A stretch of 64,000 nt of DNA from Candidatus Hydrothermarchaeum profundi (GTDB lineage Archaea > Hydrothermarchaeota > Hydrothermarchaeia > Hydrothermarchaeales > Hydrothermarchaeaceae): NCBI GenBank assembly GCA_002011125.2, contig MTMF02000009.1:482995-546994 (forward strand), in the 5' to 3' direction. Under the pieces are notes generated by a model, which did not search any database, was not told the origin of the DNA, and saw only the letters and a list, made by a program, of their open reading frames with translations. A program made the position numbers and the translations under genes. Each line of letters begins with the position of its first letter. The stretch's first letter is position 1. Shown here in pieces: positions 48,109-64,000 of this stretch.

Positions 48109-48312
48109 ATGTGCCTTATACCGCCTGAGCATATGAGGCGCTATGAGCAGGGGGAGGTACCTTTAGGTAAGGAGTTTGAATGTAGAAACTGTGGAGAATC
48201 CGGGATAGTGAATGTATGGAAGAACAAGCGGCCAGTATGCCCGAAATGTGGCTCCTCTGATGTAATCCTAACTCCTGGCGGGACTCATATGCCTGATGGT
48301 TGCCGCGACTAA
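48109..48312 (+). CDS. Small zinc-ribbon protein, intact paralogue
   Basis: 67 residues: MCLIPPEHMRRYEQGEVPLG, then two zinc knuckles ECRNCGESGIVNVWKNKRPV and CPKCGSSDVI and TPGGTHMPDG. A near-identical gene lies at 53050-53296, where it is frameshifted. The DNA of the two copies is about 92% identical over the ribbon part (48181-48298 against 53124-53240). Small rubredoxin/ribbon-like; function unknown. Confidence 0.75.
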   Translation: MCLIPPEHMRRYEQGEVPLGKEFECRNCGESGIVNVWKNKRPVCPKCGSSDVILTPGGTHMPDGCRD

Positions 48313-50639
48313 CAGGGTGGTTTTTTAACATGTTTTATTGTTAGGACACCTGTCATGGAGTACTCGATCAGGGTCCTCGGTGCCCCGGGTATGAATCTTT
48401 TCTCTCCCCTGTCAAGGGCTTCTTCTTCTTTCCAGAGGGATAAGCCGTGGTATGGGAAGTCTGGGTCGTTTATCTTCGCCCATGGCCAGCCGAGGGCGGG
48501 TTCGCCGTCCTTGACTAATATTATATCGCTCTTAGAAGCCACGGCTAGCTTAAGCTCTTTTTGCGTTATCCTTGTGGCCCAGAAGACCTTGTCTCTTAGA
48601 GCTTCTGACAGCGCTGTTACCTTGCTGGTTATCTCGTAGGCTGTTTCAGCAGGCTCTAGGTCTATGAATCCAACGTAGGCGTCATCTATGATGAAGTGAA
48701 GGCTGGGGGCTCCATCGTTTACTACGTACTGGGCCTTTAAGCCTTCTCCAAGGCTCAGGGCGGCCTTCGGTTCGAACTCGCTGTACGCCAGAAGGGTCTT
48801 AACTTTTGCTGGGGCTATGCTCATTCTGTAGTTCTCGGAGCTCGTTACTAGGTAGTCTTTTCCCTCGTAGGCGAAGACCCCGCCTGCCTCTGGGCCTGCG
48901 AGGACCTTGCCGAGCCTTATCCTCACCGGGGGCCCGCTGTCATGGAGGTAGAGGGAGTCATAGAGGGAGTCGCCTTCGATGTCTTTTATCGGTGAGAGGG
49001 TGTAGACCTCCCCTGATTCTCCTTTGATGTCCACGCTCAGCAGGGTCTCGTAGTCTCCTACTTCCTCTGGGAGCTTGTGCACGGTTACAGGGAGGGATGT
49101 TGTAACCCCCCCGATGGCGGCGGAGATGATGCCTGAGCCGGGGGCTTCAGGGGAGAAGGCGAGGGTCTCCCCGGTCTGGGAAATTCTGAACTCCGTTGAA
49201 CTCCAGGAGACCTCTACAGGGTTGCCCGCGGGGCCGTAGGCAGTGAAGGTGGCTTGCTCGCCCTCATAGAAGCACGTGCGGTTACCCGGGGTGCCTATTG
49301 TCACCCCGCCGGTAATAGTTGCATTTCCTTTTTCAACACAATGAGCTATACCATTGCCGCTTATCCCTCCGAACACGTAGTTATCCGGAGCCTCTTCTGG
49401 CGACATTTTAAAGGAAAAAGTAACGCTATGATAACCCGACCCTTCGCGAATACAGGTAAACTTGAATTTTTTAGTCCAGCGTTCACCTGGCCTAAGAAGG
49501 GGATATACTGTGCCGTCCTTTTCTAACTCCAAACTACCTTTAGCAGTGGGTTCTATTTCCACATTTTTTAATTCAGTTGGTAGTTGTCCTTCTTCTAACT
49601 CCCCCTTAGGAAGGTTCTGGATAATGAATGTTGCTTCAAAAGAATTGCCCACAGAAAGACTAATTTCATGGGGAATTATCATAATTTTAACCGTGCCAGC
49701 TTGTATAGTTTGTTGTCCTCCAACTCCGGTAATTGTAGCTTCTTTAGTTATAATTGGTATTAGATATTTTTCATCAACGCATTCAGCAGTGCCTCTTATC
49801 CATATAGATACGTCAATAAGATTACTCGGCTCCTCCACCTGTGGAACCCAATAGCCAACACTAGCGCCATATCTACCTTTTCCGCCGTGGCAAATATAAT
49901 AAAAGGTTGTTTGGTAATGCTCCCCAGATTTAAGGATTCCAATCTCTTTTGAACTGCTTATCGTACCCACAGGAATATCCCAGACTTCGGGCCATATCGC
50001 TGCATATTTTATATCTGTAGGTTTTCCTTCCTTTAACTCCTCGGCTGGTAAGTTCCAGATTTCAAAATCCGCCTTAAAAATACTTTCAGGAGGAAGGCTT
50101 ATTCTTTCCGGACGCATTTTAAATTTAATAGTCCCCATCCGTTTAACCACCCAACTGAAATGGCTGGTGTTTCCTTCTATATACGCCTCTCCAGGTCCCA
50201 CCACCACCCTCTGATCCTGGAGGAGCTCGACTTCTCCCCTGCCATTAACGGTGAGGAGGATGGGTGGCGCTACTTCTGTCTTGTTCGCGGTTATGTTGTA
50301 GAGGGAGCTGTCTAGGGCTATCTTGATGGTCACTGGCTTCTTGAAGGCTATGCCCTCTGGTCCGAGGCGGTATGGCTGCCCGATGACTGGCATCTCCCTC
50401 AGAGCCTTTGGTAGTTCATCTACGGAGGTAGCCTCACAGGTGACGGTGGTTTCCTTCTTTAAGGCGCCCTCTGGCACATCTACCAACACTCTGCCGTTGT
50501 CGCAGCTGAGGTTACCGCCCCCGGGGCCTATGATCGCTGAGGCTACTGCGATTTCGCCTGGGCCGTGGAGGAGAAATAACAGGGCAACACTCGTGGCTAA
50601 GGCAGCCAATAATAAGAGATAAGTCTTACTCCTACCCAT
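48309..50639 (-). CDS. Large secreted ZU5/Ig-like multidomain protein
   Basis: 776 residues. Signal peptide or anchor (about 6-25, TYLLLLAALATSVALLFLLH), then a ZU5-like domain (about 36-130) with IIGPGGGNLSCDNGRVLVDV and PEGALKKETTVTCEA. Residues about 170-440 are two tandem copies of a roughly 130-residue beta domain (KMRPERISLPPESIFKADFE; IPHEISLSVGNSFEATFIIQ), an Ig-like unit with EGEQATFTAYG, and a further beta-rich C-terminal half. The two-copy part (about 49320-50130) is AT-rich against a G+C-rich remainder. Probably a cell-surface adhesion or scaffold protein. It precedes the aspartyl protease. Confidence 0.8.
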   Translation of the reverse strand: MGRSKTYLLLLAALATSVALLFLLHGPGEIAVASAIIGPGGGNLSCDNGRVLVDVPEGALKKETTVTCEATSVDELPKALREMPVIGQPYRLGPEGIAFKKPVTIKIALDSSLYNITANKTEVAPPILLTVNGRGEVELLQDQRVVVGPGEAYIEGNTSHFSWVVKRMGTIKFKMRPERISLPPESIFKADFEIWNLPAEELKEGKPTDIKYAAIWPEVWDIPVGTISSSKEIGILKSGEHYQTTFYYICHGGKGRYGASVGYWVPQVEEPSNLIDVSIWIRGTAECVDEKYLIPIITKEATITGVGGQQTIQAGTVKIMIIPHEISLSVGNSFEATFIIQNLPKGELEEGQLPTELKNVEIEPTAKGSLELEKDGTVYPLLRPGERWTKKFKFTCIREGSGYHSVTFSFKMSPEEAPDNYVFGGISGNGIAHCVEKGNATITGGVTIGTPGNRTCFYEGEQATFTAYGPAGNPVEVSWSSTEFRISQTGETLAFSPEAPGSGIISAAIGGVTTSLPVTVHKLPEEVGDYETLLSVDIKGESGEVYTLSPIKDIEGDSLYDSLYLHDSGPPVRIRLGKVLAGPEAGGVFAYEGKDYLVTSSENYRMSIAPAKVKTLLAYSEFEPKAALSLGEGLKAQYVVNDGAPSLHFIIDDAYVGFIDLEPAETAYEITSKVTALSEALRDKVFWATRITQKELKLAVASKSDIILVKDGEPALGWPWAKINDPDFPYHGLSLWKEEEALDRGEKRFIPGAPRTLIEYSMTGVLTIKHVKKPPC

Positions 50640-50701
50640 AAATATAGATTAGCTCTTGGAATAAAGAATTTTCCTTTTCCTGCATTATAGACTTGGTAAT
50701 A

Positions 50702-51628
50702 CTATTTTTTCTCATGAATTATCAGAAGTTTTAGCTTGGGGTCTAGGGTGTAGATGACCTGGTTTAGCACGCTCTGGCCGAGCATTGGGTAAATCCACAT
50801 GGGTTGCTGCATGAGAAACACTAAGCTGTCGTTGAAGGTAAGGTTGTCGATCTGTAGGTTGGCGAAGGCGTAGTCGAGCCTCCCGAGGTTAGGTGTTTCA
50901 AAGCCGGTTTTCTTCCTCTCTATCCCCAGCTCCTCAACAGTGCTGGGAGGCAAGGTTGTGTCGCTTAACCCCGTGTCCAGGAAGAAAGACACCTCTCTAC
51001 CGTTTATCTTCCCCGGGAGAAAAACGATTCCATTCTCTATCCTCAAGGGGATAACAGCAAGGGCTTCTCCCGGCAGGCTACCCGGCTCTCGGACTACAAT
51101 GATGTTGCTCTCCGCGTCAATCGTCCACTGATACCTCAAGATGATGTCTGTTCCAAGGAAGCCGTCGATTCCGGGGAAGACCTCCTCCCGGTAGACCTTA
51201 ACAGGATAATCCCTGTAGGTGTCGTTGAAAAGCCTGAAGGATAGCCTCGCCTCCCCCACGAGTATCGGCTTGCCCATGGAGTCCCTCCAGCTCGTATCCT
51301 TGACAGGAAGCAGTTCTAAGCCGAGCTCTCTGGCGAGCCTCGAGGATACTAGGGTCCCCACGATAGCCCCGGTGTCCCAGCTGAAAAACTTGGAGAAACT
51401 CTGGAACTCCACTTCAACACCGAAGACCCTGTTGTCCCTCCCTGGGGCTTTGCTTCCAAGGATCGGCACGAGCTCAGCCCGGAAGCCTCGTTGGAGGTAG
51501 TCTTTTTCTTCAATCCCAGGCTTCTGATGAGTTTCTCCCGTCTGCCGGAAAAAAAGTATTAAGACTGCAAACACCATGAGAGCCAGCAGTAATGGCAGGA
51601 AACGGAGGTTGTTAGATACCAGGGACAT
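50702..51628 (-). CDS. Membrane-anchored two-lobed retropepsin-like aspartyl protease
   Basis: 308 residues. N-terminal TM/anchor (LRFLPLLLALMVFAVLILFF). Two D-T-G active motifs occur in one chain: SWDTGAIVGTLVS (about residue 81) and FFLDTGLSDTTLPP (about 217), each followed by a helix ELGLELL or ELGI and a partner strand with FLGTDI or MLGQSV. So two retropepsin lobes are fused, like pepsin, rather than a homodimer. Probably a surface protease; 62 bases upstream (in transcription) of the ZU5 protein, which could be substrate or partner. Confidence 0.82.
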   Translation of the reverse strand: MSLVSNNLRFLPLLLALMVFAVLILFFRQTGETHQKPGIEEKDYLQRGFRAELVPILGSKAPGRDNRVFGVEVEFQSFSKFFSWDTGAIVGTLVSSRLARELGLELLPVKDTSWRDSMGKPILVGEARLSFRLFNDTYRDYPVKVYREEVFPGIDGFLGTDIILRYQWTIDAESNIIVVREPGSLPGEALAVIPLRIENGIVFLPGKINGREVSFFLDTGLSDTTLPPSTVEELGIERKKTGFETPNLGRLDYAFANLQIDNLTFNDSLVFLMQQPMWIYPMLGQSVLNQVIYTLDPKLKLLIIHEKK

Positions 51629-51869
51629 TAATATAAAATTACTCGGCGAATAAAAAAAATTTTTCTTCTCTAGTTAATCGTAACTAGGCGGGAATAAACC
51701 CTAAAAAATGAGGTCTGGAATAACTTGAAGTGAGCAATCTGATATCCCCGAACTTTTAGTGAAATTCTTAAGGAAAAATTAGAAAGTACCCCATGGGTAT
51801 AGGCAATGAAGAGTTCCGTCCATGAGCTTTCCAACATAACTGTAAAAAGGCCCCTGTCAGGGTGGTTAT

Positions 51870-52580
51870 CTACAAAATTTTTTCAAGGCCCCTGATATCT
51901 TTTCTTAGATGAGTGGTATAGCGGGGCAGGTACTCTAATATTATATTGCCCTGCCAGCCTTTACTTTGTAATAGTTTGACTACTTCAGCGCAGAAACTGT
52001 CAATAGGCAGATGATGCTCCTTTTCTCCTTTTGCAGATAGGTGTACCACCCTTATATTATGCCAATAGCTTTCTATGATCCGAAGTATCAATGAATTATC
52101 CCGTATGTGAGATACATCTAATGTCATGGGCAGCCCTCTTTCAACTATTTCTAGGGGCTGAAACAGCCTTTTCCTTCCTCTGAAGGTTTCAATACAAAAC
52201 TTGGCATCTGAACCTTCCTGCAGTCTCCTTAGGAACATTAAAGCTTTCTCCTGAAGCGTGGCTCTGTTAGATTTAACTTGGTTAGGATGAACTGTAACAT
52301 CTCTAACACCAAGAGCATTTGCAAATTCTAAGGTCTTTTTACCCCAGGTTAAAAAAGCCTCTTCCGAGATCCTCCCCTGCGTGGCATGTATAGACAGTAT
52401 CTCTAATTTCTCCTTTAAGAAAAACTCCAGTACTTCCTTCAGTCTATCCTCTATGGGAAGCCAGAGTTCCTGATATCGCCACGGCAAGGCGAGTTCTATG
52501 GGAAAATCTACATCAGAAAAGCTCTCTAGGTCCTCGAGTCTGTCAAAGCTAACTCTGCCGCCTATTCTAACAGCTGCCAT
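51870..52580 (-). CDS. Sugar phosphate isomerase/epimerase-like TIM-barrel protein
   Basis: 236 residues. Xylose isomerase-like barrel with metal ligands plausible in ILSIHATQG, DVTVHPNQV, KFCIETFRG, TLDVSHIRD, VVHLSAKGE and a last ILEYLP. A distant relative of the protein at 9633-10358. Stand-alone leftward gene. Substrate unknown. Confidence 0.8.
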   Translation of the reverse strand: MAAVRIGGRVSFDRLEDLESFSDVDFPIELALPWRYQELWLPIEDRLKEVLEFFLKEKLEILSIHATQGRISEEAFLTWGKKTLEFANALGVRDVTVHPNQVKSNRATLQEKALMFLRRLQEGSDAKFCIETFRGRKRLFQPLEIVERGLPMTLDVSHIRDNSLILRIIESYWHNIRVVHLSAKGEKEHHLPIDSFCAEVVKLLQSKGWQGNIILEYLPRYTTHLRKDIRGLEKIL

Positions 52581-52704
52581 ATACTTTAATAATGAGCCCC
52601 TAGATAGTTTTTTAAGTATTGGGAACCGTTTTTAGTAATAGCGACTTGAAGAGCCTGCAAGGAATAGATATAAGAGATTAGAAAATAAAAAGAGGGGAGA
52701 CATT

Positions 52705-52944
52705 ATGTCGAAACAAACTATCAAGAAAAAATATATTGGCTCTGCTACTATGCAAGACAACGGCACGATTTTACTACAACTTCGAGCCGAAAGCTCTGAG
52801 GGCACTATCGGTGATGTGCTGTTGAAGTATCCACCCCAGCATCCACAATATCGCAAAATCCTCCGGCATGTTGGTGGATTAAAACCGGGCGAGTGCAAAC
52901 CTGTTTCACCTTGGCCTGAAGAAGAGAATTCAAAGTATAGCTGA
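52705..52944 (+). CDS. Hypothetical protein, 79 aa
   Basis: A small basic protein with QTIKKKYIGSATMQDNGTIL, PPQHPQYRKILRHVGGLKPG and a Pro-rich end. GAGGGGAGA before the ATG is a fine ribosome-binding site. No family recognised. It precedes the broken zinc-ribbon paralogue at 53050 and the repeat-protein cluster. Confidence 0.6.
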   Translation: MSKQTIKKKYIGSATMQDNGTILLQLRAESSEGTIGDVLLKYPPQHPQYRKILRHVGGLKPGECKPVSPWPEEENSKYS

Positions 52945-53049
52945 AAGGTAGGACCAATACTTTTCTTTAGAGCTCTTTTTTTGATTATTAAAACAAAACA
53001 ATAAATACTCCATACCATTACTAATAAAATAAAGGGAAGGGCTGTTGCA

Positions 53050-53296
53050 ATGTGCATTATACCTCCGGAAGTAGCAGATGCCTATGAAAAGGGGGGAGGT
53101 ACCCCTGGGCAGGGAGTTCGACTGTAGAAACTGTGGAGAATCCGGGATAGTGAATGTGTGGAAGAACAAGCAACCGGTATGCCCAAAATGTGGCTTCCCT
53201 GATGTAATCCTAACTCCTGGCGGGACTCATATGCTTAATAGACCTATTTTCTGGTACAGGCTACAATGGTGGCTTTCCCATCTTCTCCTAAACTAG
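53050..53296 (+). pseudogene. Frameshifted zinc-ribbon paralogue
   Basis: ATG at 53050 opens MCIIPPEVADAYEKG, as in the intact copy at 48109, but a G run (GGGGGG at 53091-53096, one base longer than expected) shifts the frame. The rest (EVPLGREFDCRNCGESG and CPKCGFPDVI) is open from 53078. Either real decay or a sequencing/assembly error at the homopolymer; a fix would give a protein of about 80 residues with a different tail. Confidence 0.65.
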
Positions 53297-53598
53297 ATTC
53301 CGCAAGATTTTTGATGTTGGAAGGAGAAATTATTTTAAAAATGAAGTTGCTTTCCAAGGAAGAAAGGGAATATTTCGAGGACCTCGAGAAGAATTTCGAC
53401 AGCCATGTGGAGAAGTACAGGGAAGAAAAGGAAAGGCAGCTGAAAGAAGGAAAGAGGAAAGAACTCGAGGAGGAACTCAGAGGCATAGAGGGTTACCTGG
53501 AAGGTATTTGGAGAGGAGAAATTTCTGACATCCAGGTAAATATCAGGTTCCATAGCGCTAAGTTACAGGTACTTAAAGAGGTTCTTGAAATTTGTTGA
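53266..53598 (+). CDS. Coiled-coil protein, 110 aa
   Basis: The best start is unclear: 53266 overlaps the zinc-ribbon frame; ATG at 53314 or 53341 (KLLSKEEREYFEDLEKNF) is more natural. The rest is a long Glu/Lys-rich helix (EKYREEKERQLKEGKRKELE) ending with VLKEVLEI. Probably a coiled-coil partner of the following LRR protein. No family. Confidence 0.55.
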   Translation: MVAFPSSPKLDSARFLMLEGEIILKMKLLSKEEREYFEDLEKNFDSHVEKYREEKERQLKEGKRKELEEELRGIEGYLEGIWRGEISDIQVNIRFHSAKLQVLKEVLEIC

Positions 53599-54437
53599 TA
53601 GAAAAAATGAAAGAACTCGACGAGAGTTTTATTTCGGGTGTAATTATAGAGGAACTCTGGAAAGACGAGGACAAGGTTGAACAACAGGGTAGTGGTTGGT
53701 TTTCCAGAGAGGGAGAGTGGAGTTGTAACCTTAGAGAGGTAAAAGTAGACGATGTCAAGAAGCTCCGGGAGGGAGGCTACGAAGTATCTGCAACCTGCAA
53801 CATGGAAATCCAAACAGCACAAGTATATTCCTTTGACCATCCCCCAAAAGAAGCTCTTGGACGGGTAACGGTAAAAGTAAACGAGGACCTCAAGGTGGAG
53901 GAGTTCGATTATAAATGGATGAGCGAAGCTTTGGGTGGGCGATGTGGCTATAGCTTGGAAGAGATAACTGAGTGCAGGGACCTGCAGATGCTAGAGTTGG
54001 AATATCAGAAGCTCACCGAGCTACCTCCCGAGATAGGAGAGCTAAGGGACCTTAGGTATCTGATTATAAGAGGTAATTCCCTAACTCAGCTTCCACCAGA
54101 GATAGGGAAGCTTAAAAACTTGGAGTATCTTGATTTATGCTTAAACCGCCTTACTGCTCTCCCAGCAGAAATAGGAGAGCTTCGAAGCTTGTGGAAGCTT
54201 GATTTAAGGAGCAACCAACTCACTCGTCTTCCAGTTGAGATCAGGAACTTAACAAATCTGAGGTATCTCTACCTAGGAAATAATAAATTCTCTAAGGATG
54301 AAAAATCAAGGATCAGGGAGTTCCTGCCGAGGTGCCGGGTTTCCTTCTGGTTCTGGGGACCGCATTACGGCGTGTTTTTAGGGAATTTGGATGAGGAGTT
54401 AGAGGAGTTAGAGGAATCATTCAGGAGGCACTCATAA
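53592..54437 (+). CDS. Leucine-rich-repeat protein with an N-terminal shared domain
   Basis: 281 residues (TTG 53592 or ATG 53607). Residues about 1-120 are a domain with WFSREGEWSCNLREVKVDD and YEVSATCNMEI...VTVKVNEDLKVEEFDYKW, closely like the whole of the next protein. Residues about 130-240 are four or five 23-residue LRRs (LTELPPEIGELRDLRYLIIR) of the bacterial/plant 'LPxEIGxLxxL' type. Then an acidic tail. Cytosolic. LRRs suggest protein binding. Overlaps the next gene at the stop. Confidence 0.82.
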   Translation: MLIEKMKELDESFISGVIIEELWKDEDKVEQQGSGWFSREGEWSCNLREVKVDDVKKLREGGYEVSATCNMEIQTAQVYSFDHPPKEALGRVTVKVNEDLKVEEFDYKWMSEALGGRCGYSLEEITECRDLQMLELEYQKLTELPPEIGELRDLRYLIIRGNSLTQLPPEIGKLKNLEYLDLCLNRLTALPAEIGELRSLWKLDLRSNQLTRLPVEIRNLTNLRYLYLGNNKFSKDEKSRIREFLPRCRVSFWFWGPHYGVFLGNLDEELEELEESFRRHS

Positions 54438-54841
54438 TGAAAATGCTTACAAAGGAAGTTATAGAGAAACTGGTACGCCGGGAGCTTGAAAAAGGTGAAA
54501 AGGAATTTGGGGAGTTATTCACAGCAGCTCAAGAAGGGAGGATAACTTGGGAGGAATTCAGGGATAAGAGCAGGACGCTACAAGGCTACGGCGTCTGGTG
54601 GAGCTCGGAGGCGCACTATTCCCTTGGAAAGGTGGAGGTAAACGAGGTCAACGAGCTGGGAGATGGTCTCTATGAAATCTCCGCGACATGTGACATGTTT
54701 TACGAGAGCGGGCATATAGTCTGGGGTGAAGGAGGAGAACTCGAAGAGTATGCCATAAGGCCTAAAAAAGCATCTGTAAAGATAAAGCTCAGGGTCAATG
54801 ACGCTCTTAAGGTGGAGGAGTTCAACTTCCGGTGGATTTGA
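54437..54841 (+). CDS. Paralogue of the LRR protein's N-terminal domain, 134 aa
   Basis: Shares VWWSSEAHYSLGKVEVNEVN, YEISATCDMFY and VKIKLRVNDALKVEEFNFRW with the N-terminal domain at 53592, so the two arose by duplication; this one lacks the LRRs. Unknown family. The beta-propeller gene starts 1 base after its stop. Confidence 0.75.
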   Translation: MKMLTKEVIEKLVRRELEKGEKEFGELFTAAQEGRITWEEFRDKSRTLQGYGVWWSSEAHYSLGKVEVNEVNELGDGLYEISATCDMFYESGHIVWGEGGELEEYAIRPKKASVKIKLRVNDALKVEEFNFRWI

Positions 54842-54842
54842 A

Positions 54843-56255
54843 ATGAAATTAAGGTTGAAGGAATTGGAGAAAGCCGAGAACGTGACCATTGAGCTAGGCG
54901 ATGACCTGGTCTGGGTGGGAGCAGAGAACGGCTTTTATAAAATAGACAGGGTAAGAAAGCAGGTATTGGAGAGGTTCCCTATAAGGGAGAGGGTTTTCCC
55001 GGAGAAGGAATCGGTAAGGGTGGCCATCGACGGCGACTGCGGGATACTTTGGCTCGCTGCCGAGGGGTGCGTGGTGAGGTTTGACGGGAGAGAACTCAGA
55101 AGGTTCACTCCTGAAGACGGGCTCCCAGAGGAGTCCCCTGACTGCATTGGAGTAGATGAGAGGGGAAGAGCATGGGTTGGCTACTCTGGGGTAATATGTT
55201 GGTTCGACGGAGCGAGATGGCACAGGGTGGAGCTGGAGTTCAAGCATTCCACGTTCACCCCGGGTGCAGATGTAATAGGTTTCGATGGCATGGGCGGGGT
55301 ATACGCGGCTGACACCCATGTGCTGTCCGTGGTTAAAGGAGAAACCTATGAGTGGGTGGTGCTTAATGAGGATTTCAACACGATTGATAGTGGCGACACT
55401 CCGGAATGCATTCACATAGCTGGTGATGGTTCGGTCTGGGTAGGCACATGGGGAAATGGAATGATAGTGGTAAAGGAAGGAGCCGTTAAAAGACTGGCTT
55501 CTGGGGGCTATGAGCGCGTTGAAAGTCCTCGGGGCATGAGAGAGGATTCAAAGGGCAATCTGTGGCTGTGCTGCAGTAGGAGCCTTTTCAGGATAGATAA
55601 ATTTAAAATAGAGGAGTACAGCCTTAGGGGCAAGATACCCGGGGTTGTGGTAGACTTCAGGGTGGACAAGGATGGCAATTTCTGGCTTCTTACCAAGCCC
55701 GGCAACGAAGTGCTGGTGTTGCCGCAGAGGGAGATTCTCGCCCCATTGGAGGTGAGAGAAGCGAAGGGGAAATTTAGCGGGCTTCCCGTGGTGAGGGTAA
55801 GCGGTTTCGAGTATGTTGATGCTAGCTTGAATGCGGATTTCTGGAGCACGAAGGAGCACAAGAGGATGGCGAGGATATGCATGAAAAAGTCTTTCGGGCT
55901 TTTTTTGCGCAAACTTTGGCTGTTTTTGGGCATACGCCTAAGAAAGGTAAACGAGGAAAAGCTGAGAGAAGCAGACGAGAAAGCCTTGGCTAAGCTCCGA
56001 GGGGAGGTAATGGAGGAGATGCTCAGGCTGGGGGAGAGGCTTAAGGAAAAAGGGCTGGAGAAGTGTCTGCGGGCTTTCATGGGTGCCCATGGCCTGGCAA
56101 TCCCTGCCCTTGCGGAGAGGATAAAGTACAGAGGCAGGGATGCCTGGGTCTTCGCGGCTAACTGGGGGTTCGGTTCTATGGATTATAGTCACATAATCTT
56201 GGAGGTAATAGATGAAGAAACAGGTGAGACGCTGTTCTCTGAGAGATGTAGATGA
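54843..56255 (+). CDS. Beta-propeller protein (two-component-regulator propeller type) with C-terminal helical domain
   Basis: 470 residues from the ATG at 54843. Residues about 20-300 hold propeller blades with the WVG/WLA signature: DDLVWVGAENGFYKIDR, GILWLAAEGCVVRFDG, RAWVGYSGVICWFDG, GSVWVGTWGNGMIVV and GNLWLCCSRSLFRID. C-terminal half (about 330-470) is helical with ISHIILEVIDEETGETLFSE-like end. Cytosolic; no histidine-kinase part. The C-terminal DNA is repeated in debris at 44202. Confidence 0.75.
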   Translation: MKLRLKELEKAENVTIELGDDLVWVGAENGFYKIDRVRKQVLERFPIRERVFPEKESVRVAIDGDCGILWLAAEGCVVRFDGRELRRFTPEDGLPEESPDCIGVDERGRAWVGYSGVICWFDGARWHRVELEFKHSTFTPGADVIGFDGMGGVYAADTHVLSVVKGETYEWVVLNEDFNTIDSGDTPECIHIAGDGSVWVGTWGNGMIVVKEGAVKRLASGGYERVESPRGMREDSKGNLWLCCSRSLFRIDKFKIEEYSLRGKIPGVVVDFRVDKDGNFWLLTKPGNEVLVLPQREILAPLEVREAKGKFSGLPVVRVSGFEYVDASLNADFWSTKEHKRMARICMKKSFGLFLRKLWLFLGIRLRKVNEEKLREADEKALAKLRGEVMEEMLRLGERLKEKGLEKCLRAFMGAHGLAIPALAERIKYRGRDAWVFAANWGFGSMDYSHIILEVIDEETGETLFSERCR

Positions 56256-56295
56256 TGAGTAAGCAGGCGAGGATTAAAACCAGAAAGTGAAGGCG

Positions 56296-57831
56296 ATGAC
56301 CCATAGGCCCCTTGAACCTGATGTGGAGAAGATGAAGGCAAAAGGAGATGTTGCAGGGCTGATAGAAGCCCTCAGCTATGGGGACCCCGAGATTCGGATA
56401 AAGGTCGTGGGGACTCTAGAGGAGATGGATGTCAAAAAGACAATAAAGCCCCTCCTACATGCCTTAAAGGACCCCAAGGTCGAGTACTGGGCGGAGTTGG
56501 TTCTGAGGAGAATCGTTAACCCCCAGGTGATTGAGCCTTTGATTCAGGCATTGAAGGACGAGAATCAGCGGGTTCGCTGGCAAGCCAGCTTGCTCCTTGC
56601 GATAATAGGGGAACCCGCAGTAGGACCCTTAATAGAGGTCTTGGAGGATGAAAATCCAGATGCCAAGGAGTATGCCGCCTGGACTCTAGGGGAGCTCGAG
56701 GATAGAAGGGCGGTGAAACCTCTTATTAGGGCTTTAAAGGACGGGCATGGAGGGGTTCGGCGGAACGTTGCTATGGCTCTCGGGAAGATAGCAGATGAAA
56801 GAGCAGTGGAGGCGCTGATAGATACCCTGATGGACGAGGAGATGGAGGTTCGAGAGGAGGCAGCTCTGGCCCTGGGCAAAATAGGGGACGAAAGAGCCCT
56901 AAAACCCTTGCTTCTGCTCTTGGAGGAGGACGATGAGGAACTGCGAAAGGTTGTGGGAGAAGCCCTTGGAGGCTTAGGGAAGCCTGCGGTCGGGCCTTTA
57001 ATCCAAGCCCTGGAAGATAAAGACGACAGTATTCGATACATAGCGGCGGTGGCCCTGGGATTGATAAAAGATGCTGGGGCGGTGAAGCCTCTTATCCGGG
57101 CCCTCGATGACCCCGTGCCCCGAGTCAGGTCAAGGGCAGCCCGGGCCTTGGGAAACATCGGTGACAAAAGAGCAAGAGAGCCTCTCCTCAAGGCCCTGAA
57201 GGACGGAGATGTGGAAGTAAGGCGGGACGCAGCAGATTCCCTTAGCAGGATAGGGAGCACGGAGGTGGTGGAGGCCCTGGTTCAGGCACTGAAGGATGAG
57301 GATAAGTGGGTTCGGACGCATGCTGTCTGGGGGCTTGGCAGGATAAGGCGCGGGGGAGTAGTGGAGCCCCTTATTGGTGCTCTGAAAGATAGAGACGGGT
57401 GGGTCCGGTGGAGCGCCGTTCAAGCTCTGGGAGAATTAGGCGATAAAAGAGCCGTAGAGCCCCTGATACGCGCTTTGGAGGAAGACGAGGACGTTAGCGT
57501 TCGGAGCTTTGCTGCCATTGCTCTCGGGAAGATAGGGATGAAAGAAGCGACAGGGGCTTTAATCAAGGCTCTAAAAGATAAAGACTGTGAGGTCAGATAT
57601 TGGGCTGTGTGGGCTCTTGGAGAGATCAGAGGCAGGAAAGCCATAGAACCGCTAATCCAGGCGCTAAGGGATGATGACTGGGGTGTCAGGTCCGAGGCAG
57701 CCCGGGTTCTTGGAGAGATTGGAAGCAAGAAGGCTGTGGAGGCCCTGCGCAGAGCCCTGGAGGATGAGGATGAAGGGGTACGGCGCGCTGTGGAGGAGGG
57801 TCTTAGATTTTCGTCTCTGGAACTGAGGTGA
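56296..57831 (+). CDS. HEAT/PBS-lyase repeat protein, about 511 aa
   Basis: A solenoid of about 15 repeats of 31 residues with the pattern KPLIRALKDxxxxVRxxAAxALGxIGDERA. Examples: AVKPLIRALKDGHGGVRRNV, VEALIDTLMDEEMEVREEAA. PBS-lyase/HEAT repeats act as protein scaffolds. No catalytic part. The DNA is G+C rich. A GTG at 56287 is an alternative start. Follows the propeller gene by 40 bases. Confidence 0.92.
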   Translation: MTHRPLEPDVEKMKAKGDVAGLIEALSYGDPEIRIKVVGTLEEMDVKKTIKPLLHALKDPKVEYWAELVLRRIVNPQVIEPLIQALKDENQRVRWQASLLLAIIGEPAVGPLIEVLEDENPDAKEYAAWTLGELEDRRAVKPLIRALKDGHGGVRRNVAMALGKIADERAVEALIDTLMDEEMEVREEAALALGKIGDERALKPLLLLLEEDDEELRKVVGEALGGLGKPAVGPLIQALEDKDDSIRYIAAVALGLIKDAGAVKPLIRALDDPVPRVRSRAARALGNIGDKRAREPLLKALKDGDVEVRRDAADSLSRIGSTEVVEALVQALKDEDKWVRTHAVWGLGRIRRGGVVEPLIGALKDRDGWVRWSAVQALGELGDKRAVEPLIRALEEDEDVSVRSFAAIALGKIGMKEATGALIKALKDKDCEVRYWAVWALGEIRGRKAIEPLIQALRDDDWGVRSEAARVLGEIGSKKAVEALRRALEDEDEGVRRAVEEGLRFSSLELR

Positions 57832-57884
57832 GATAGCATGCTGTAGGTTCTGCGTGGCAGGTACATATAGCGAGGGGTAATGAA

Positions 57885-58340
57885 ATGGGAAGGTTAATTT
57901 ATGCTGGATTAAACGGAGAAGCCGTTTGGAAGTATGTCCCCATAGTTCAGGACAGCGAGCAATACAGGATTGCAGAGGAGCTTGGGATAGGGAGAATGGA
58001 ATACCCCCTGAGCAGGGTCCCTTACTGCAGGCACAAGAAACATGAGGAAGAGGAGTGCCCGGAGGAGTGCGAGTGGGACGACTGCCCCTTCGCCGGAGAT
58101 ATACTGTTTCTTCGGAGGGATGACCTGCCAAGGCTCAAGAAAGCCCTGGAGCCGCACCTCGGGGAAATCGAGAAGTACGAGAAGGAGCGTGGAGACAGAG
58201 ATTCCATCCGGGTTAGAAGGCTCATAAATCTTACAGAGAAATACCCAGACATCCACTTCTGGAGGATGGTGAAGGCAATTGTCGAGTATATGGAGAGAAC
58301 GGACTTGGACGCTTATGAGTTCTGGGGAGAATACGAATGA
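57885..58340 (+). CDS. Hypothetical Cys/His-rich protein, 151 aa
   Basis: No family recognised. A metal-binding-like cluster CRHKKHEEEECPEECEWDDC (about 47-67) lies between an N-terminal beta part and a helical C-terminus ending YMERTDLDAYEFWGEYE. No TM. Probably cotranscribed with the HEAT gene and the next gene. Confidence 0.6.
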   Translation: MGRLIYAGLNGEAVWKYVPIVQDSEQYRIAEELGIGRMEYPLSRVPYCRHKKHEEEECPEECEWDDCPFAGDILFLRRDDLPRLKKALEPHLGEIEKYEKERGDRDSIRVRRLINLTEKYPDIHFWRMVKAIVEYMERTDLDAYEFWGEYE

Positions 58341-58360
58341 CCCGTCCATGGTGAGGTAGC

Positions 58361-58810
58361 ATGGGGACGTACCACGCAATAGCTCCGGTTGACTGGTCCA
58401 AACTCTGGAGGGAGGTCATGCCCTCGTGGTACCGGTGCTTGAAGGGGAAAGACCTGAAAACCTTTGCAGACACTTTTGTCAAGGACCGGAGGGAGTACGA
58501 TGATATCAACGATACCTTCTTCACGGAGGTGTTGGAGGAGTGGCATAGGGTATTGAAGACCCTGCCCGACGGGTGGCATGCTGACTTTGACTGGCTGTCC
58601 CGGTCAGGGATATTCCGTGCCTTCCGCTGCGAGGGGTACGCGCACCAGGAATACATAGAGGAACTGGATGCAACGGACCTTCTAATCAATGCGGTGGTTC
58701 AGCACGCCGGGGTTGTGCTCTCTGGGAGAGACAGGTTTTCCTTCTCGCCCTATGACAGGTTCTATAGCAAGTTGCACGACTACCCAGAGATACAGGTGGG
58801 CTGGCACTAA
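58361..58810 (+). CDS. Hypothetical protein, 149 aa
   Basis: No family recognised. Starts MGTYHAIAPVDWSKLWREVM, mostly helical, aromatic. Ends FSPYDRFYSKLHDYPEIQVGW. It is preceded by a small gap with GAGGTAGC and followed by a frameshifted gene. No TM or signal. Confidence 0.58.
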   Translation: MGTYHAIAPVDWSKLWREVMPSWYRCLKGKDLKTFADTFVKDRREYDDINDTFFTEVLEEWHRVLKTLPDGWHADFDWLSRSGIFRAFRCEGYAHQEYIEELDATDLLINAVVQHAGVVLSGRDRFSFSPYDRFYSKLHDYPEIQVGWH

Positions 58811-58814
58811 GAAC

Positions 58815-59173
58815 ATGTACTTCTTCCTCGACGTGCTGTTTCATCGAAGGGAGGTTAAAAAGGGATTCGTCTACGAGGACCGGGGCGTCGTGGATAAGGA
58901 AATCATTGACCTTTTGAGGTACCTGCTTTTTGGGTCCGCACCCTACCCGGGTCGATTCTCTGCCCCGCCGGTTGCGACTGGCCCTGGGGAAACATATGGA
59001 TAATCCAGGGGTATCTCCTGCCCGGGGAGGCGAAAAAGCTGAGCTCCTACTGGGCCGAGATAACCAAGCACATGAATCCGGAGGAGGACGAGCTTTCCAC
59101 AATATTCTGCGACTGCGTACAGCGTTCAGCCAGGGCGAACGCAGGCTTAATCACCCTTTATGATAGCTTGTAG
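58815..59173 (+). pseudogene. Frameshifted gene after the 149-aa unknown
   Basis: ATG at 58815 gives MYFFLDVLFHRREVKKGFVY then DRGVVDKEIIDLLRYLLFG and runs out at 59003, while another frame continues WGNIWIIQGYLLPGEAKKL and SYWAEITKHMNPEEDELSTI to TAG at 59171. The frame changes somewhere around 58950-58990. Joined, the product would be about 119 residues. True decay or a sequencing error cannot be told apart here. Confidence 0.55.
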
Positions 59174-59372
59174 GAAAAACGGAAAACTTTTATCCTTCTT
59201 CAAAACGTCGAAGAATGTGGATGAGAGGTTCTCGACCGATTCGGTGGCAATCCTCGTTTAGACGTAGAGACTCCCAGTTCTTCTGTTCATTACCTACAAA
59301 ATCTGCGCACTTGATTGATAGAATCATAGTCCCCTAGCAACTTATAAGAACTCTCGAGGAGTATAAAAGCCC

Positions 59373-59786
59373 ATGGGAAAAAACCTCCTTGTCAGCCTGA
59401 ACCTGGGTTCTGCAATCGCCGGGGAAGCCGAGCCGGTTTACTTTGAAGACCAGGAGCTAGAGGAGCTCAGGAGAGCTACTGGCAAAAAGCCTGGCTTCCG
59501 CTTTCTCCGGGAGGTGCTGTTCTCTCCCGCCTCCGAGGTGCCCCCTGAGAGCCTGCCGAGGCTTATCAGGGACTTAGCCGGGCTGTTGCTTCCCTACTAC
59601 GGGCTCTCCCGGAGGAGCAGGGGCATCGTGATAGAGCTTATAACCAGGGCGGCGGACGCCATCGAAGAAAAAGATGCCCTCTGCCTCTGGGACAGCGACG
59701 CCGTGGGCAAGATAGACTATGAGAAGGCCGTAAAAAAGGTTGAAGATTTCTATCCAGAGAAGGAGAAGGGCAGGGACATAAAATAG
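59373..59786 (+). CDS. Hypothetical protein, 137 aa
   Basis: No family recognised. N-terminal MGKNLLVSLNLGSAIAGEAE, then a helical bundle (PESLPRLIRDLAGLLLPYYG; RGIVIELITRAADAIEEKDA). Acidic-basic tail. No TM. Upstream gap of 199 bases holds nothing clear. Confidence 0.55.
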   Translation: MGKNLLVSLNLGSAIAGEAEPVYFEDQELEELRRATGKKPGFRFLREVLFSPASEVPPESLPRLIRDLAGLLLPYYGLSRRSRGIVIELITRAADAIEEKDALCLWDSDAVGKIDYEKAVKKVEDFYPEKEKGRDIK

Positions 59787-59796
59787 GGTGATAAGT

Positions 59797-59898
59797 TTGA
59801 ATATAACCATTAGAGATGTGGACGAAAAGGTCTTCAGGGAATTTAAGGCTGAGGCGATGAGGGATGGAACACGCCTTAGGGGAGCGCTAACAGATTGA
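59797..59898 (+). pseudogene. Truncated VapB-type antitoxin
   Basis: TTG start gives MNITIRDVDEKVFREFKAEA and then stops at 33 residues (normal about 60-90). The start is typical VapB. A frameshift in the C-terminal part is likely. It lies just before the broken vapC. Confidence 0.6.
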
Positions 59899-59920
59899 TG
59901 AGATACTTTATGGTGGTTAG

Positions 59921-60283
59921 ATGGCAGTGTTCATCGACTCCAGCGCGTTCATAGCGTACTACAACAGAGGGACCTCCGCCACAGAGCCTCAGGGAATTAA
60001 TAAAGAATTGCGTTAAGGGAGCCTTTGGGGAGTTCTTCACCTCTGACTACGTGGTTCGAGAGGCAGTCACCGTAACGCTCCTTAAAACCGGCTTGAAGAG
60101 AGCCGTTGAACTCGGGGATTACCTATTAAACTCGGAGGTCACATTACTCGAAGTTGACGGAGACATCTTCAAAGAGGCTTGAGAGGAGTTCAAGACACCG
60201 AGGCTAAGCTTCACGGGATAGACAAGATTCTGACATTTGACAAGGGATTCAAAGGAATAAAAGGGATAAAAGCCATACTCTAG
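59921..60283 (+). pseudogene. Decayed VapC-type PIN toxin
   Basis: ATG at 59921 gives AVFIDSSAFIAYYNRG, the PIN start, then the frame breaks. Later frames give GAFGEFFTSDYVVREAVTVT, LLNSEVTLLEVDGDIFKEA followed by TGA, and the end DKILTFDKGFKGIKGIKAIL to TAG. At least two frameshifts and a stop; non-functional. Confidence 0.65.
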
Positions 60284-60292
60284 GGAGTAATT

Positions 60293-63200
60293 TTAATCCA
60301 AAAGTTGCTCCAGGAGGGTCCTATACGCCTCAGAGGGCTCAACTCCTGAGAGCTCTATCAATTCCTTCAAATCCTCTATCCATCCCTTCCGTACGTAAGT
60401 CCTGTACATCTCTCTGAGGAATTCTTCTGGGAACTCGGGTTCGATGCCGGTAACCCATATCCAGTCCGCGACTCTACTTGCCCATCCCCTCTTCACCAGA
60501 GCTCTGTATCCCTTCTGGATGGTTTTCTCCGAGGGTTTAACCCCCGTTGCCTCTGCTAGGGCTTCTAGTTGGTCAAACTCTAGGTTCCGCATAATGGCGA
60601 TATATCTTTTTTGAACGAGCTCCCCGGGAAGCTCTGGTTCGACTCCTGTCAGCTCCACTAACTCTTTAAAGATATCCGGGTTTCCCCTCTCTAGGAACAT
60701 CCTGTAAACTTTTTGAAGGGTCTCCTCATGGGGGCTGGTTAGGGTAACCTCTACCAGAAATTTCACGCTGGTGTCCCAGCCCTTCCGTAGGTAGGTTTTA
60801 TATATCTCCTGGAGGAATTCTTCTGGGAACTCGGGTTTAACCCCTGTGGCTATAACCAGTTCCTTGAAAAACGGCAGCCACCCCTTCTGCACTAGAGCCA
60901 TGTAGCCTTCCTGCACGATCTCCTCAAAGGGCTCTACCCCCGTGAATTCTCTAAACCTTTTAAACTCATCTGGCCATCCCTCAGCCACGACGTTTATGTA
61001 CGCCTCTTGGATAAACTCCTCGGGCAACTCCGGCTCAACCCCAGTAACCTCCTTTAACTCCTCTAGGAGATACATCGGCCTCCCCTCTTCGATGAAAGTT
61101 CTGTACACTCTCTGAACAGTTTCTCCTGGTAACTCTGGCTTAACTCCCGTAATCTCTACCAGATACACCAGGCTACTGGACCATCCCCTCTCTACGATGG
61201 TTTCATAAGCCTCCTGGAGGAATTCTTCTGGGAACTCGGGTTTAACCCCGGTAGCTATTACCAGCTCTTTCAGCTGCTTTAGGCTTCCATCCCTTACGAG
61301 GTCCCTGTACACTTCTTGTAGGAGATCCTCCGGTGGCTTGACCCCTGTGGTGTCTATCAGCTCCTTGAAATGTTCGAACCACTCTGAGGGAGGCAGCCCT
61401 TCTTGTACGCTCCATTCTACGAGGCTCCGATATTTTTTCCTGACAGCGTCCTCCGATGGCTTAACCCCTGTACGCCTCATTAATGCACCCAGATGGGACA
61501 GCCAGCCCTTCTCTAGGAAGGTTTTGCAGGCCTCCTGGACGAAGTCCTCCGATGGCTTAACCCCGGTAAGCTCCATCAGCTCCCAGATATCGTTCAACCA
61601 CACTTCCTGCAGAAAGGTTTTATAGGTCTCCTGGACGAACTCCTCGGGCAGCTCTGGCTCTACCCCTGTGAGCTGCATCAGCGCCTCTACACCCGAGATG
61701 TTTCTTTCCAGCACGAAGTCTCTGTATTTCTCCTGGATCTTTCCTATGAGCATTTCTTTGTCTATGCCACGGGACTCGGCATAGGCAAAAAATCCCGAAG
61801 CCAAGGTAAAAAGTTTCAAAAGCCACTCCAGGAGGCTTCTGCCAGGCTTGATTCCTGTGAACTCCATTAATTCCTTCAAGCTCTTTGGCTTCCCTTTTTG
61901 TATGAGGTTTGTATAGGCTTTCTGAATAAAATCCTCCGAGAGTCTGGGCTCAATCCCCGTGGCTTTCACCAGTTCTTTTAGATAACTTATCTGTCCATTC
62001 ACCACCAAAGCCTTGTATCCCTCTTGAACCACCTTCTCCGACGGTTTAATCCCTGTGGCCTTTATCAGTTCCTTGAATTCGCGGATTTCATTAAGCCAGC
62101 AAATCCTCGTCATTTTCGCTATAAAAAGCGAATACTGTTCTTGGACAAAGCCCTCGGGTAACCTTGGTTTAACACCCGTGGATTTTGCCGCATCTTTAAG
62201 GCGCTTTAGGTTTCTGCCGATTGAATGGCGCTCCGTGCACGCTAATCTTACGCATTCCTTGTAGCACTCTTGGATGGCTTCATCCTCCAACTCGATTCCC
62301 AGAGCTCTGGCCGCGATTATAAAATCGTACACTCTGTGTCTTTGCTTGCAGCTCCGGTAGATTTCCTGAATATTTTCCTCCATCAGCTTGGTCCCTGTAA
62401 CTTCTGCTATAATCACGAAATCGCACAGCCTGTTTCCCTTCTTGTATTTCTGGTAGACTTCTTGCAGGAAGGCGTTAGAGAACTTGGGCTTGATCTCTGT
62501 AACTTTTACGAATTCCCTTAACCCGGGCAAATCACATCCGCCCTTCAGAGCGAGATATTCATATGCCTCCTGAACCACTCGCTCAGCCGGGTCTATCCTC
62601 ACAAACTCCTTAAACTCTCTAAAGCGCTCCACCCCTTGGTACTTCATAATGTACTTGTACCTTCTCTGAACATCTCCCCAGCGTATCTTGAATCCTGTTA
62701 CCTCCACCAGTTCTTTTATCACCCAAGGAGGAGCATGCCCTTCTCCCACCAGAACTTGATAAGCCCTACGAACAGCTTCCTCGGATAACCTGGGCTTGAC
62801 CCCTGTAAGTTCGATGAGGTATTTTAAGCTGCCCGACCATGTATCCCTTATAATAGCTTTGTATGCTCTCTGGAGGAATTCCTCTGGGAACTCGGGTTTT
62901 ACCCCTGTGGCTATTATGAGTTCTTTCAGTGGTTTCAAGCTTCCATCCCTTACGAGGTCCCTGTACACTTCTTGTAGGAGATCCTCCGGTGGCTTGACCC
63001 CTGTGGTGTCTATCAGCTCCTTGAAATGTTCGAACCACTCTGAGGGAGGCAGCCCTTCTTGTATGCTCCATTCTACGAGGCTCCGATATTTTTTCCTGAC
63101 AGCATCCTCTGATGGCTTAACCCCTGTACGCCTTATCAGTGCTTTTAGGTGAAGGAAGCACTCCTGCTTCAAGAAGGTTTTGCAGGCCTTCTGGACGAAC

Positions 63201-63463
63201 TCCTCCGATGGCTTAACCCCGGTAAGCTCCATCAGCTCCCAGATATCATCTACCCGCTCTTTCCGGAGATAGCTTCTGTACGCCTCCTGGACGAACTCCT
63301 CGGGCAGCTCTGGCTCTACCCCTGTGAGTTGCATCAGCGCCTCTACACCCGAGATGTTTCTTTCCAGCACGAAGTCTCTGTATTTCTCCTGGATCTTTCC
63401 TATGAGCATTTCTTTGTCTATGCCCTTGGACTCGGCGTAGGCTAGCAAATCCAAAGGTAACAT
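60293..63463 (-). CDS. Giant alpha-solenoid repeat protein, PPR-like, 1056 aa
   Basis: About 28 tandem repeats of 31-36 residues with the pattern TGVKPsEEFVQxAYkxLxxxG..LKELIE. Each unit reads as two helices separated by the GVKP turn, similar to the pentatricopeptide repeat (helix-turn-helix, GxxPd). Two halves are near duplicates: residues 1-240 and about 556-780 share YAESKGIDKEMLIGKIQEKY and many identical repeats. No signal or TM. PPR proteins bind RNA; here the assignment is only from the pattern, and other solenoids (TPR, Sel1-like) cannot be excluded. Confidence 0.8.
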   Translation of the reverse strand: MLPLDLLAYAESKGIDKEMLIGKIQEKYRDFVLERNISGVEALMQLTGVEPELPEEFVQEAYRSYLRKERVDDIWELMELTGVKPSEEFVQKACKTFLKQECFLHLKALIRRTGVKPSEDAVRKKYRSLVEWSIQEGLPPSEWFEHFKELIDTTGVKPPEDLLQEVYRDLVRDGSLKPLKELIIATGVKPEFPEEFLQRAYKAIIRDTWSGSLKYLIELTGVKPRLSEEAVRRAYQVLVGEGHAPPWVIKELVEVTGFKIRWGDVQRRYKYIMKYQGVERFREFKEFVRIDPAERVVQEAYEYLALKGGCDLPGLREFVKVTEIKPKFSNAFLQEVYQKYKKGNRLCDFVIIAEVTGTKLMEENIQEIYRSCKQRHRVYDFIIAARALGIELEDEAIQECYKECVRLACTERHSIGRNLKRLKDAAKSTGVKPRLPEGFVQEQYSLFIAKMTRICWLNEIREFKELIKATGIKPSEKVVQEGYKALVVNGQISYLKELVKATGIEPRLSEDFIQKAYTNLIQKGKPKSLKELMEFTGIKPGRSLLEWLLKLFTLASGFFAYAESRGIDKEMLIGKIQEKYRDFVLERNISGVEALMQLTGVEPELPEEFVQETYKTFLQEVWLNDIWELMELTGVKPSEDFVQEACKTFLEKGWLSHLGALMRRTGVKPSEDAVRKKYRSLVEWSVQEGLPPSEWFEHFKELIDTTGVKPPEDLLQEVYRDLVRDGSLKQLKELVIATGVKPEFPEEFLQEAYETIVERGWSSSLVYLVEITGVKPELPGETVQRVYRTFIEEGRPMYLLEELKEVTGVEPELPEEFIQEAYINVVAEGWPDEFKRFREFTGVEPFEEIVQEGYMALVQKGWLPFFKELVIATGVKPEFPEEFLQEIYKTYLRKGWDTSVKFLVEVTLTSPHEETLQKVYRMFLERGNPDIFKELVELTGVEPELPGELVQKRYIAIMRNLEFDQLEALAEATGVKPSEKTIQKGYRALVKRGWASRVADWIWVTGIEPEFPEEFLREMYRTYVRKGWIEDLKELIELSGVEPSEAYRTLLEQLLD
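61128..61790. repeat. Internal segmental duplication, copy 2
   Basis: Nearly identical DNA to about 62750-63440, offset about 1640 bases, within the giant repeat gene. The stretches 61300-61475 and 62955-63133 differ by only a few bases. Recent tandem duplication or gene conversion. Confidence 0.7.
62750..63440. repeat. Internal segmental duplication, copy 1
   Basis: Partner of the repeat at 61128-61790. Confidence 0.7.
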
Positions 63464-63534
63464 GCTAATAGATTTTTAACGTGTAGAGTTAAAAGTTTTA
63501 TTGTATAAATGAAAAGAGTTTAAAACAAGGAGAA

Positions 63535-64000
63535 ATGAGGGCTGAGGAAAATACTGAAGATTTACTTAGGGCTTTGAAATCTGACGCAGATACTGTCCAA
63601 GCCCTAGAGGGAAAGAGGCTTGGAGTGTCTGAGCCTCACGCTTCTTCTGCCAGGCATCGCAAGATTATGTCATTCTTCATCCTGGGAGTATTGCCCATCT
63701 CCCTAGCGGGATTGATGGTGTTTTTCCTTGCCACAAGGGCACCGATGCTCCTCCTGCTCCTTATACTGCTCTACGGTCTTGAACTCCTATTATTTATCGT
63801 GTTCTCCTTTGACCTAAGTTCAGTCGTTAAAGGCAGCCTGGTGTTCAAGGCGTCTATGGTTGATATGAGGTCTAGAGGGCTAACCGAGATATCAAGGGAT
63901 GTCTGGAAGTATGGGCATTTGAAGATTCTCAGGTTGTCTCATAACCGCATCGCCCATCTGCCGCCAGAGATAGGTGAACTCGAGGACTTAGAGGAGCTTG
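63535..64000 (+). CDS. Membrane leucine-rich-repeat protein (3' end cut by window)
   Basis: ATG at 63535 (AAGGAGAA upstream) opens a frame to the window edge. Residues about 45-100 have two hydrophobic helices (MSFFILGVLPISLAGLMVFF; LLLLLILLYGLELLLFIVFS). From about residue 117 LRRs begin: LTEISRDVWKYGHLKILRL, RIAHLPPEIGELEDLEEL, the same type as in the LRR protein at 53592. Divergent from the giant repeat gene. Function unknown. Confidence 0.75.
   Translation, partial: MRAEENTEDLLRALKSDADTVQALEGKRLGVSEPHASSARHRKIMSFFILGVLPISLAGLMVFFLATRAPMLLLLLILLYGLELLLFIVFSFDLSSVVKGSLVFKASMVDMRSRGLTEISRDVWKYGHLKILRLSHNRIAHLPPEIGELEDLEEL

What the first reader, a model, noticed from the sequence alone, without database searches (positions are those of the whole stretch)
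60293..63463. PPR-like giant solenoid in an archaeon with a near-exact internal duplication
Seen: about 28 units of the TGVKP type and near-identical DNA over about 175 bases and more between 61300-61475 and 62955-63133. Known: PPR proteins are typical of eukaryotes and rare outside. If these are PPRs, an RNA-binding code could be present; the duplication shows that repeat number is still changing.
Basis: partly seen in the sequence, partly recalled or inferred. Interest (0 to 1): 0.6.

Follow-up and report, generated by a model that had tools for sequence, protein, structure and literature searches.

The report
Undescribed archaeal helical-repeat protein family
This gene encodes a giant all-helical repeat protein of a family absent from the protein-family databases searched here and found mainly in tiny symbiont-type archaea; its shape most resembles the RNA-binding PPR proteins of plants, but it lacks their sequence signature and their RNA-reading code.

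Summary
Window 60293-63463 (-) is one 1056-aa ORF with 29 'TG[VI][KE]P' anchors (units of 32 or 34 aa, some longer) and near-identical DNA between its halves. It is not a PPR, TPR or Sel1 protein by sequence (Pfam, NCBIfam). AlphaFold gives an all-helix two-helix solenoid (pLDDT 88 for aa 807-1056), and Foldseek's top 12 PDB hits are PPR proteins, but only by local fold (TM 0.27-0.36). Helix B is about one turn shorter than in PPR. The positions equivalent to PPR code residues 5 and 35 are near-invariant (Q; S/P), so a PPR-style RNA code is unlikely.

It belongs to an undescribed archaeal family with shared N- and C-caps, found in about 5% of sampled Woesearchaeota/Nanoarchaeota genomes (18/378; 16/371), but in no other of 23 genomes of its own phylum and none of 395 bacteria-centred genomes.

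The 'near-exact duplication' is not a fresh repeat-number change. Two old, capped halves are joined by a hinge, and short tracts (dS 0.03-0.05) alternate with saturated ones (dS 1-1.8): patchy gene conversion.

Most likely role: a modular binding scaffold; ligand unknown. In relatives, the gene often sits beside ribosomal-protein genes (7 of 21 loci; 1 of 20 random regions), a weak lead.

The parts
60293..63463 (-). 1056-aa repeat protein, whole ORF
   Evidence: the only match in its own 2.19-Mb genome at E<=0.1
63326..63463 (-). N-cap of first half (aa 1-46, '..AESKGIDKEMLIGKIQEKYRDF..')
   Evidence: aligned with the N-termini of L028 and L027; helices 4-12, 17-33, 37-47
61859..63325 (-). first repeat array, aa 47-535 (14 units, several degenerate in aa 256-428); basic half (pI 8.7 for aa 1-552)
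61790..61858 (-). internal C-cap-like end and hinge, aa 536-558 ('TGIKPGRSLLEWLLKLFTLASGF')
   Evidence: resembles the C-terminal cap; aa 542-558 is the only stretch under pLDDT 50 in the full-length model
61670..61807 (-). second N-cap (aa 553-598), near-identical to the first
60350..61669 (-). second repeat array, aa 599-1038 (13 units, most regular); acidic half (pI 4.7 for aa 553-1056)
60293..60349 (-). C-cap (aa 1039-1056, 'SGVEPSEAYRTLLEQLLD') and stop; same kind of end in L027 and L028
63284..63424 (-). converted tract 1, one mismatch to 61628-61768
   Evidence: exact runs 95+45; dS 0.03 for aa 14-60
63201..63247 (-). converted tract 2, identical to 61545-61591
   Evidence: exact run 47; no difference in aa 73-87
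62939..63103 (-). converted tract 3, one mismatch to 61283-61447
   Evidence: exact runs 39+125; dS 0.05 for aa 113-175
61283..61768 (-). partner copy of the converted tracts in the second half

Best explanation
It is a large, probably cytosolic alpha-solenoid of an archaeal repeat family not found in the family libraries searched here ('TGxKP repeats': helix A of 14 residues, short turn, helix B of 11, loop TGxKP). It consists of two complete, capped solenoids fused head to tail through a hinge. The conserved T, G, P, Q and Y look like the structural core (inferred). The variable residues on one side of helix A, in the A-B turn and at the start of helix B form the surface that binds a partner (inferred). 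The protein works as a modular scaffold that holds a macromolecular ligand, more probably protein or ribonucleoprotein than bare RNA read by a PPR code. Its two halves carry opposite net charge and so may hold different partners (inferred). Repeats spread and homogenise by short-tract gene conversion between the halves. Shown: ORF, repeat anatomy, caps, family, predicted fold, mosaic tracts. Inferred: location, binding role, partner, conversion as the cause of the mosaic.
For: Repeats, caps and halves. Full-length model all-helical, mean pLDDT 79.8 from 3 sequences, lowest at the hinge; C-terminal 250 aa pLDDT 88, pTM 0.72. PDB top 12 by Foldseek are PPR solenoids (names checked). Relatives with the same caps in Woesearchaeota (L028 472 aa, BLASTP E 1e-56; L027 362 aa, E 8e-46). 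Family in 18/378 and 16/371 genomes of the relatives' class and phylum. N-cap profile also finds L074 and L087, which were not used to build it. Variable positions 15, 17, 18, 22, 24-27, 29 and 30 against near-invariant 1, 5, 13 and 16. Mosaic of dS 0.03-0.05 tracts and dS 1-1.8 tracts.
Against: No partner, expression or phenotype data. Surface assignment rests on sequence variability and analogy with PPR (helix a lines the inside, PMC4837458), not on measured coordinates. The mosaic could also come from a recent partial duplication later broken up by conversion from other donors. Both structure models use shallow alignments and the full-length pTM is only 0.36.
Confidence: 0.62

Rival explanations
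1. It is an RNA- or ribosome-binding solenoid that works like PPR proteins (helix A faces RNA) but without the 5/35 code, perhaps acting in translation or RNA maturation.
For: Foldseek top hits are PPR, including mitoribosomal and RNA-polymerase-associated ones. First half is basic, pI 8.7. In relatives 7 of 21 loci lie by ribosomal-protein genes (S7/EF-2, S12, L1-L10, L21e/SRP54, L44e, L15e, S8e) against 1 of 20 random regions, one-sided Fisher 0.026; two others lie by what read as tRNA-synthetase genes (L086, L091; by eye).
Against: Equivalents of code positions invariant; second half and most relatives acidic; no ribosomal genes near the window copy; the neighbourhood test was by eye, unblinded and small, and drops to 0.046 one-sided if one orthologous pair is counted once.
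Confidence: 0.25
2. It is a true, highly diverged PPR protein acquired from a eukaryote or shared by descent.
For: Fold ranking; unit pattern with helix A of 14, G, helix B, G-[VI]-K-P; one relative (L086) has a weak Pfam PPR match, E 0.01.
Against: No PPR match in the window protein at E 10 or in nine other relatives at E 1; hhalign against a PPR consensus aligns 6 columns only, within the range of shuffled controls; low TM-scores; distribution is archaeal as far as sampled.
Confidence: 0.08
3. It belongs to a variable, conflict-type island (HEAT, LRR, TPR, SUKH, serpin neighbours) and serves as an inhibitor, immunity or capture protein.
For: GC-rich stretch with HEAT x2, LRR, propeller, aspartyl protease, TPR, SUKH-1 and serpin genes; scattered distribution.
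Against: No PADLOC match; no toxin recognised beside it; relatives sit in other, often housekeeping, contexts.
Confidence: 0.12

Closest known systems
Pentatricopeptide repeat (PPR) proteins, e.g. PPR10 and designed dPPR
   Same: Two-helix solenoid; helix A about 14 residues ending near a Gly; G-[VI]-K-P in the inter-repeat loop; top PDB fold matches.
   Different: Period 32/34 not 35; helix B 11 not 14; no Pfam PPR match; code positions 5 and 35 near-invariant Q and S/P; poor global superposition (TM 0.27-0.36 for the top 12) (PMC4837458).
TPR and Sel1 repeat proteins
   Same: Helical-hairpin solenoids of similar period; appear lower in the fold list (Sel1 rank 27, consensus TPR rank 33).
   Different: No TPR or Sel1 Pfam match to this protein; a real TPR protein about 5 kb downstream is recognised at once by the same library.
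TGxKP-repeat proteins of Woesearchaeota and Nanoarchaeota (L027, L028, L029; unnamed)
   Same: Same repeat; N-cap and C-cap shared with L027 and L028; significant by sequence.
   Different: Most relatives are single units of about 300-500 aa or carry extra domains; the window protein is a fusion of two whole units with converted tracts.
HEAT / alphaRep-type archaeal solenoids
   Same: Modular helical solenoids; two HEAT proteins lie in the same island.
   Different: The repeat protein has no HEAT match.

Membership tests
PPR | Match to Pfam PPR models | tested here: not met
   No PPR family among matches to E 10; 9 of 10 relatives none to E 1, L086 only E 0.01, under cut-off.
PPR | 35-residue unit with two helices of 14 residues | tested here: not met
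   Units 32/34; helices about 14 and 11 in the predicted model; PPR reference values in PMC4837458.
PPR | PPR-type two-helix solenoid fold | tested here: inconclusive
   Foldseek ranks 1-12 all PPR, best E 7e-4, but TM 0.27-0.36; VIA Z at most 7.5, best local match 66 residues at 2.1 A to a chain of the mitochondrial small subunit.
PPR | Variable code residues at positions 5 and 35 | tested here: not met
   Equivalent positions are Q in 36 of 38 units and S/P in 34 of 38. Equivalence rests on aligning the Gly that ends helix A.
PPR | Sequence-specific single-stranded RNA binding | not testable with these tools
   Needs an experiment.
TPR | Match to Pfam TPR models | tested here: not met
   None to E 10.
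Sel1 | Match to Pfam Sel1 model | tested here: not met
   None to E 10.
Archaeal TGxKP-repeat family (defined here) | Repeat profile match | tested here: met
   A1 profile: L028 E 3e-136, L027 1e-83, L029 1e-52; A3 profile: 1060 bits for the window protein.
Archaeal TGxKP-repeat family (defined here) | N-cap 'AESxG...QxKY' | tested here: met
   Twice in the window protein, in L027 and L028, and found in L074 and L087 by a profile not built on them.
Archaeal TGxKP-repeat family (defined here) | Absent from curated libraries | tested here: met
   Only short, mutually inconsistent Pfam and NCBIfam matches.

The most novel reading that the evidence does not exclude
A prokaryotic, mainly DPANN-archaeal, PPR-like solenoid family that binds RNA or the ribosome by a surface other than the PPR code, i.e. 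an independent invention (or ancient sister) of the PPR architecture tied to translation.
Probability: 0.17. Interest if true: 0.8.

Novelty: new variant of a known kind. Interest (0 to 1): 0.5.

Why it matters
The family is absent from Pfam and NCBIfam as searched here, it is spread over reduced-genome archaea where little is annotated, and it shows a PPR-like architecture outside the eukaryotes where PPRs abound. If it binds RNA it would bear on whether the PPR fold arose more than once. The window copy, with two fused units and crisp conversion tracts, shows how such solenoids are edited in nature.

Tried and rejected
1) Pfam and NCBIfam hits to UPF0154, Cdh1_DBD, HBB, UBA_8, HHH_3, M3 peptidase and the like: short, mutually inconsistent stretches summed over repeats; rejected as repeat artefacts. 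2) Single-protein and alignment scans for relatives in genome contigs and viral contigs found nothing or had no usable pattern; an exact degenerate DNA pattern then found three archaeal relatives, while its five bacterial hits look like chance (none of three of those genomes matched on re-search). 3) BLAST-type search in 61 relatives found only itself. 4) G099 (weak with A1) did not reappear with A3. 5) Viral origin: no viral contig has the pattern and the viral structure library gives no match at E 1e-3 or better, its best being mostly ankyrin-type solenoids. 7) Plasmid and phage protein searches failed on a frame error and were not repeated. 9) Promoter and terminator scan: nothing above chance, bacterial model only. 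10) Literature: no paper holds both 'DPANN' and 'pentatricopeptide', nor two of 'Woesearchaeota', 'repeat protein' and 'TGIKP'; the held library is partial.

Full report
What is there. The ORF at 60293-63463 on the minus strand codes for 1056 aa and is the only such gene in its 2.19-Mb genome, deep inside a 1.9-Mb contig, so a stray contig is unlikely. It has 29 'TG[VI][KE]P'-type anchors; most units are 32 or 34 aa, a few 33, 35, 36 or 41. The 34-aa form has two extra loop residues ('TGVEP-EL-PEEFVQEAY') that the 32-aa form lacks ('TGVKP-SEDFVQEAC').

Two fused units. Residues 1-46 and 553-598 are the same N-cap, shared with the N-termini of two Woesearchaeota proteins. The protein ends in a short cap ('GVEPSEAYRTLLEQLLD'), as L027 and L028 do ('GIEPSEEIYRALIEY', 'GIEPSKEVYQSLVDYL'), and a similar cap ('GIKPGRSLLEWLLKLF') ends the first half. 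In the full-length model the only stretch under pLDDT 50 is 542-558, the joint. So this is two whole solenoids in a row. The first half is basic (pI 8.7), the second acidic (pI 4.7).

The duplication. Over the first 200 residues the halves alternate between near-identical tracts (aa 14-60, dS 0.03; 73-87, no difference; 113-175, dS 0.05) and tracts near or at saturation at synonymous sites (61-72, dS 1.5; 88-112, dS 1.0; 176-200, dS 1.8); beyond 200 the halves are diverged throughout. Runs of identity this long are not expected from the same number of mismatches scattered at random (P about 5e-5). The simplest reading is an old unit duplication with recent short-tract gene conversion. A recent partial duplication later broken up by conversion from lost donors cannot be excluded. 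Either way the tracts do not show a recent change of repeat number.

Which fold. Residues 807-1056 were predicted from an alignment of window and Woesearchaeota segments: pLDDT 88, pTM 0.72, helices of about 14 and 11 residues in turn. Foldseek against the PDB puts PPR proteins in ranks 1-12 (best E 7e-4), with Sel1 at rank 27 and consensus TPR at rank 33; TM-scores of these are low, 0.27-0.36 (identities of the chains). VIA-align gives Z of at most 7.5, in the range common for helical repeats; the best local match is chain 4 of a mitochondrial small-subunit intermediate (66 residues, 2.1 A), the chain letter under which other such entries hold the PPR protein mS39/PTCD3. The fold is therefore PPR-like locally, with a different superhelix.

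Which family. Pfam and NCBIfam have no model for it: no PPR, TPR or Sel1 at E 10. Profile against consensus PPR aligns only 'GVKP', within the range of shuffled controls. In PPRs each unit has 35 residues, helices at 1-14 and 17-30, and code residues at 5 and 35 (PMC4837458). Aligning the Gly that closes helix A, position 5 falls on Q (36 of 38 units) and position 35 on S or P (34 of 38). A residue that does not vary cannot read different bases, so a PPR-type code is not supported.

Relatives. Own phylum: 1 of 23 genomes. Archaea-centred sample: only G241 beside itself at the stricter profile. Class of L028's genome: 18 of 378; phylum of L029's genome: 16 of 371 (the samples overlap). The named records are Woesearchaeota and Nanoarchaeota. 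Bacteria-centred sample: 0 of 395, with no positive control in that set. The closest relatives are L028 (BLASTP E 1e-56) and L027 (E 8e-46). Relatives vary widely: neighbouring paralogs in one genome (L074, L077), copies with an extra N-terminal domain (L082, L084, L090) or C-terminal domain (L078, L079, L080). The scattered distribution and presence in one member of another phylum suggest horizontal transfer, not tested by a tree. The gene's GC (0.49) is above that of most of the window (0.33-0.43) and also above that of the relatives' genes (0.32-0.36), so composition does not point to them as recent donors.

Function. Variable positions lie on one side of helix A, in the A-B turn and at the start of helix B; T1, P5, Q13 and Y16 hardly vary. 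This is the pattern of a scaffold with a constant core and a tunable surface (inference). As a lead to the partner, 7 of 21 relatives' loci lie near ribosomal-protein genes, one of them 33 bp upstream of L1-L10 on the same strand; a control of 20 random regions from the same genomes has one such region. The test was by eye and unblinded. The window copy does not share this context: its neighbours are HEAT, LRR, propeller, TPR, SUKH-1, protease and serpin genes.

Verdict. A real, undescribed archaeal solenoid family; PPR-like in fold, not shown to be PPR; best read as a modular binding scaffold. Only 12 bacterial PPR proteins were known when counted in the paper read here (PMC2824747, 2010); a PPR-like family in reduced archaea would be of interest if RNA binding were shown.

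Noticed in passing
window 48000-64000 and L095 1-8400: GC-rich stretch (genes up to 0.57 against about 0.40) crowded with interaction-type genes: HEAT (56287-57831; L095:732-2261), LRR (53592-54437; 63535 onward with an apparent N-terminal membrane segment), propeller, ZU5, aspartyl protease, TPR, SUKH-1, serpin.
   Followed up: partly
L082, L084, L078, L085, L096, L077, L093: Repeat-family genes next to ribosomal-protein, EF-2 or SRP54 genes in Woesearchaeota/Nanoarchaeota-type genomes; possible link to translation (7/21 against 1/20 random regions).
   Followed up: partly
window 54437-54841 and L095:6897-7286: Two small proteins sharing 'GYGVWWS' with no Pfam match; look like paralogs of an unnamed family.
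   Followed up: no
window 20406-20519 and 33576-33695: tRNA matches long enough to hold introns, found by Rfam but not by ARAGORN in bacterial mode.
   Followed up: no
L122 (G753:C30:1-10000): Tandem array of about 20 similar short orphan genes on one strand (mostly 110-170 aa, some up to 284) in a genome of the Woesearchaeota class that also has several repeat-family paralogs.
   Followed up: no
L078, L079, L080 C-termini: Conserved C-terminal domain ('RTWxRxxxDIFDN...KATDFKNR'); L078 has no Pfam match at E 1.
   Followed up: no
L083 2580-3706: Repeat gene appears split: N-cap ORF (81 aa) just upstream of the 291-aa ORF on the same strand.
   Followed up: no
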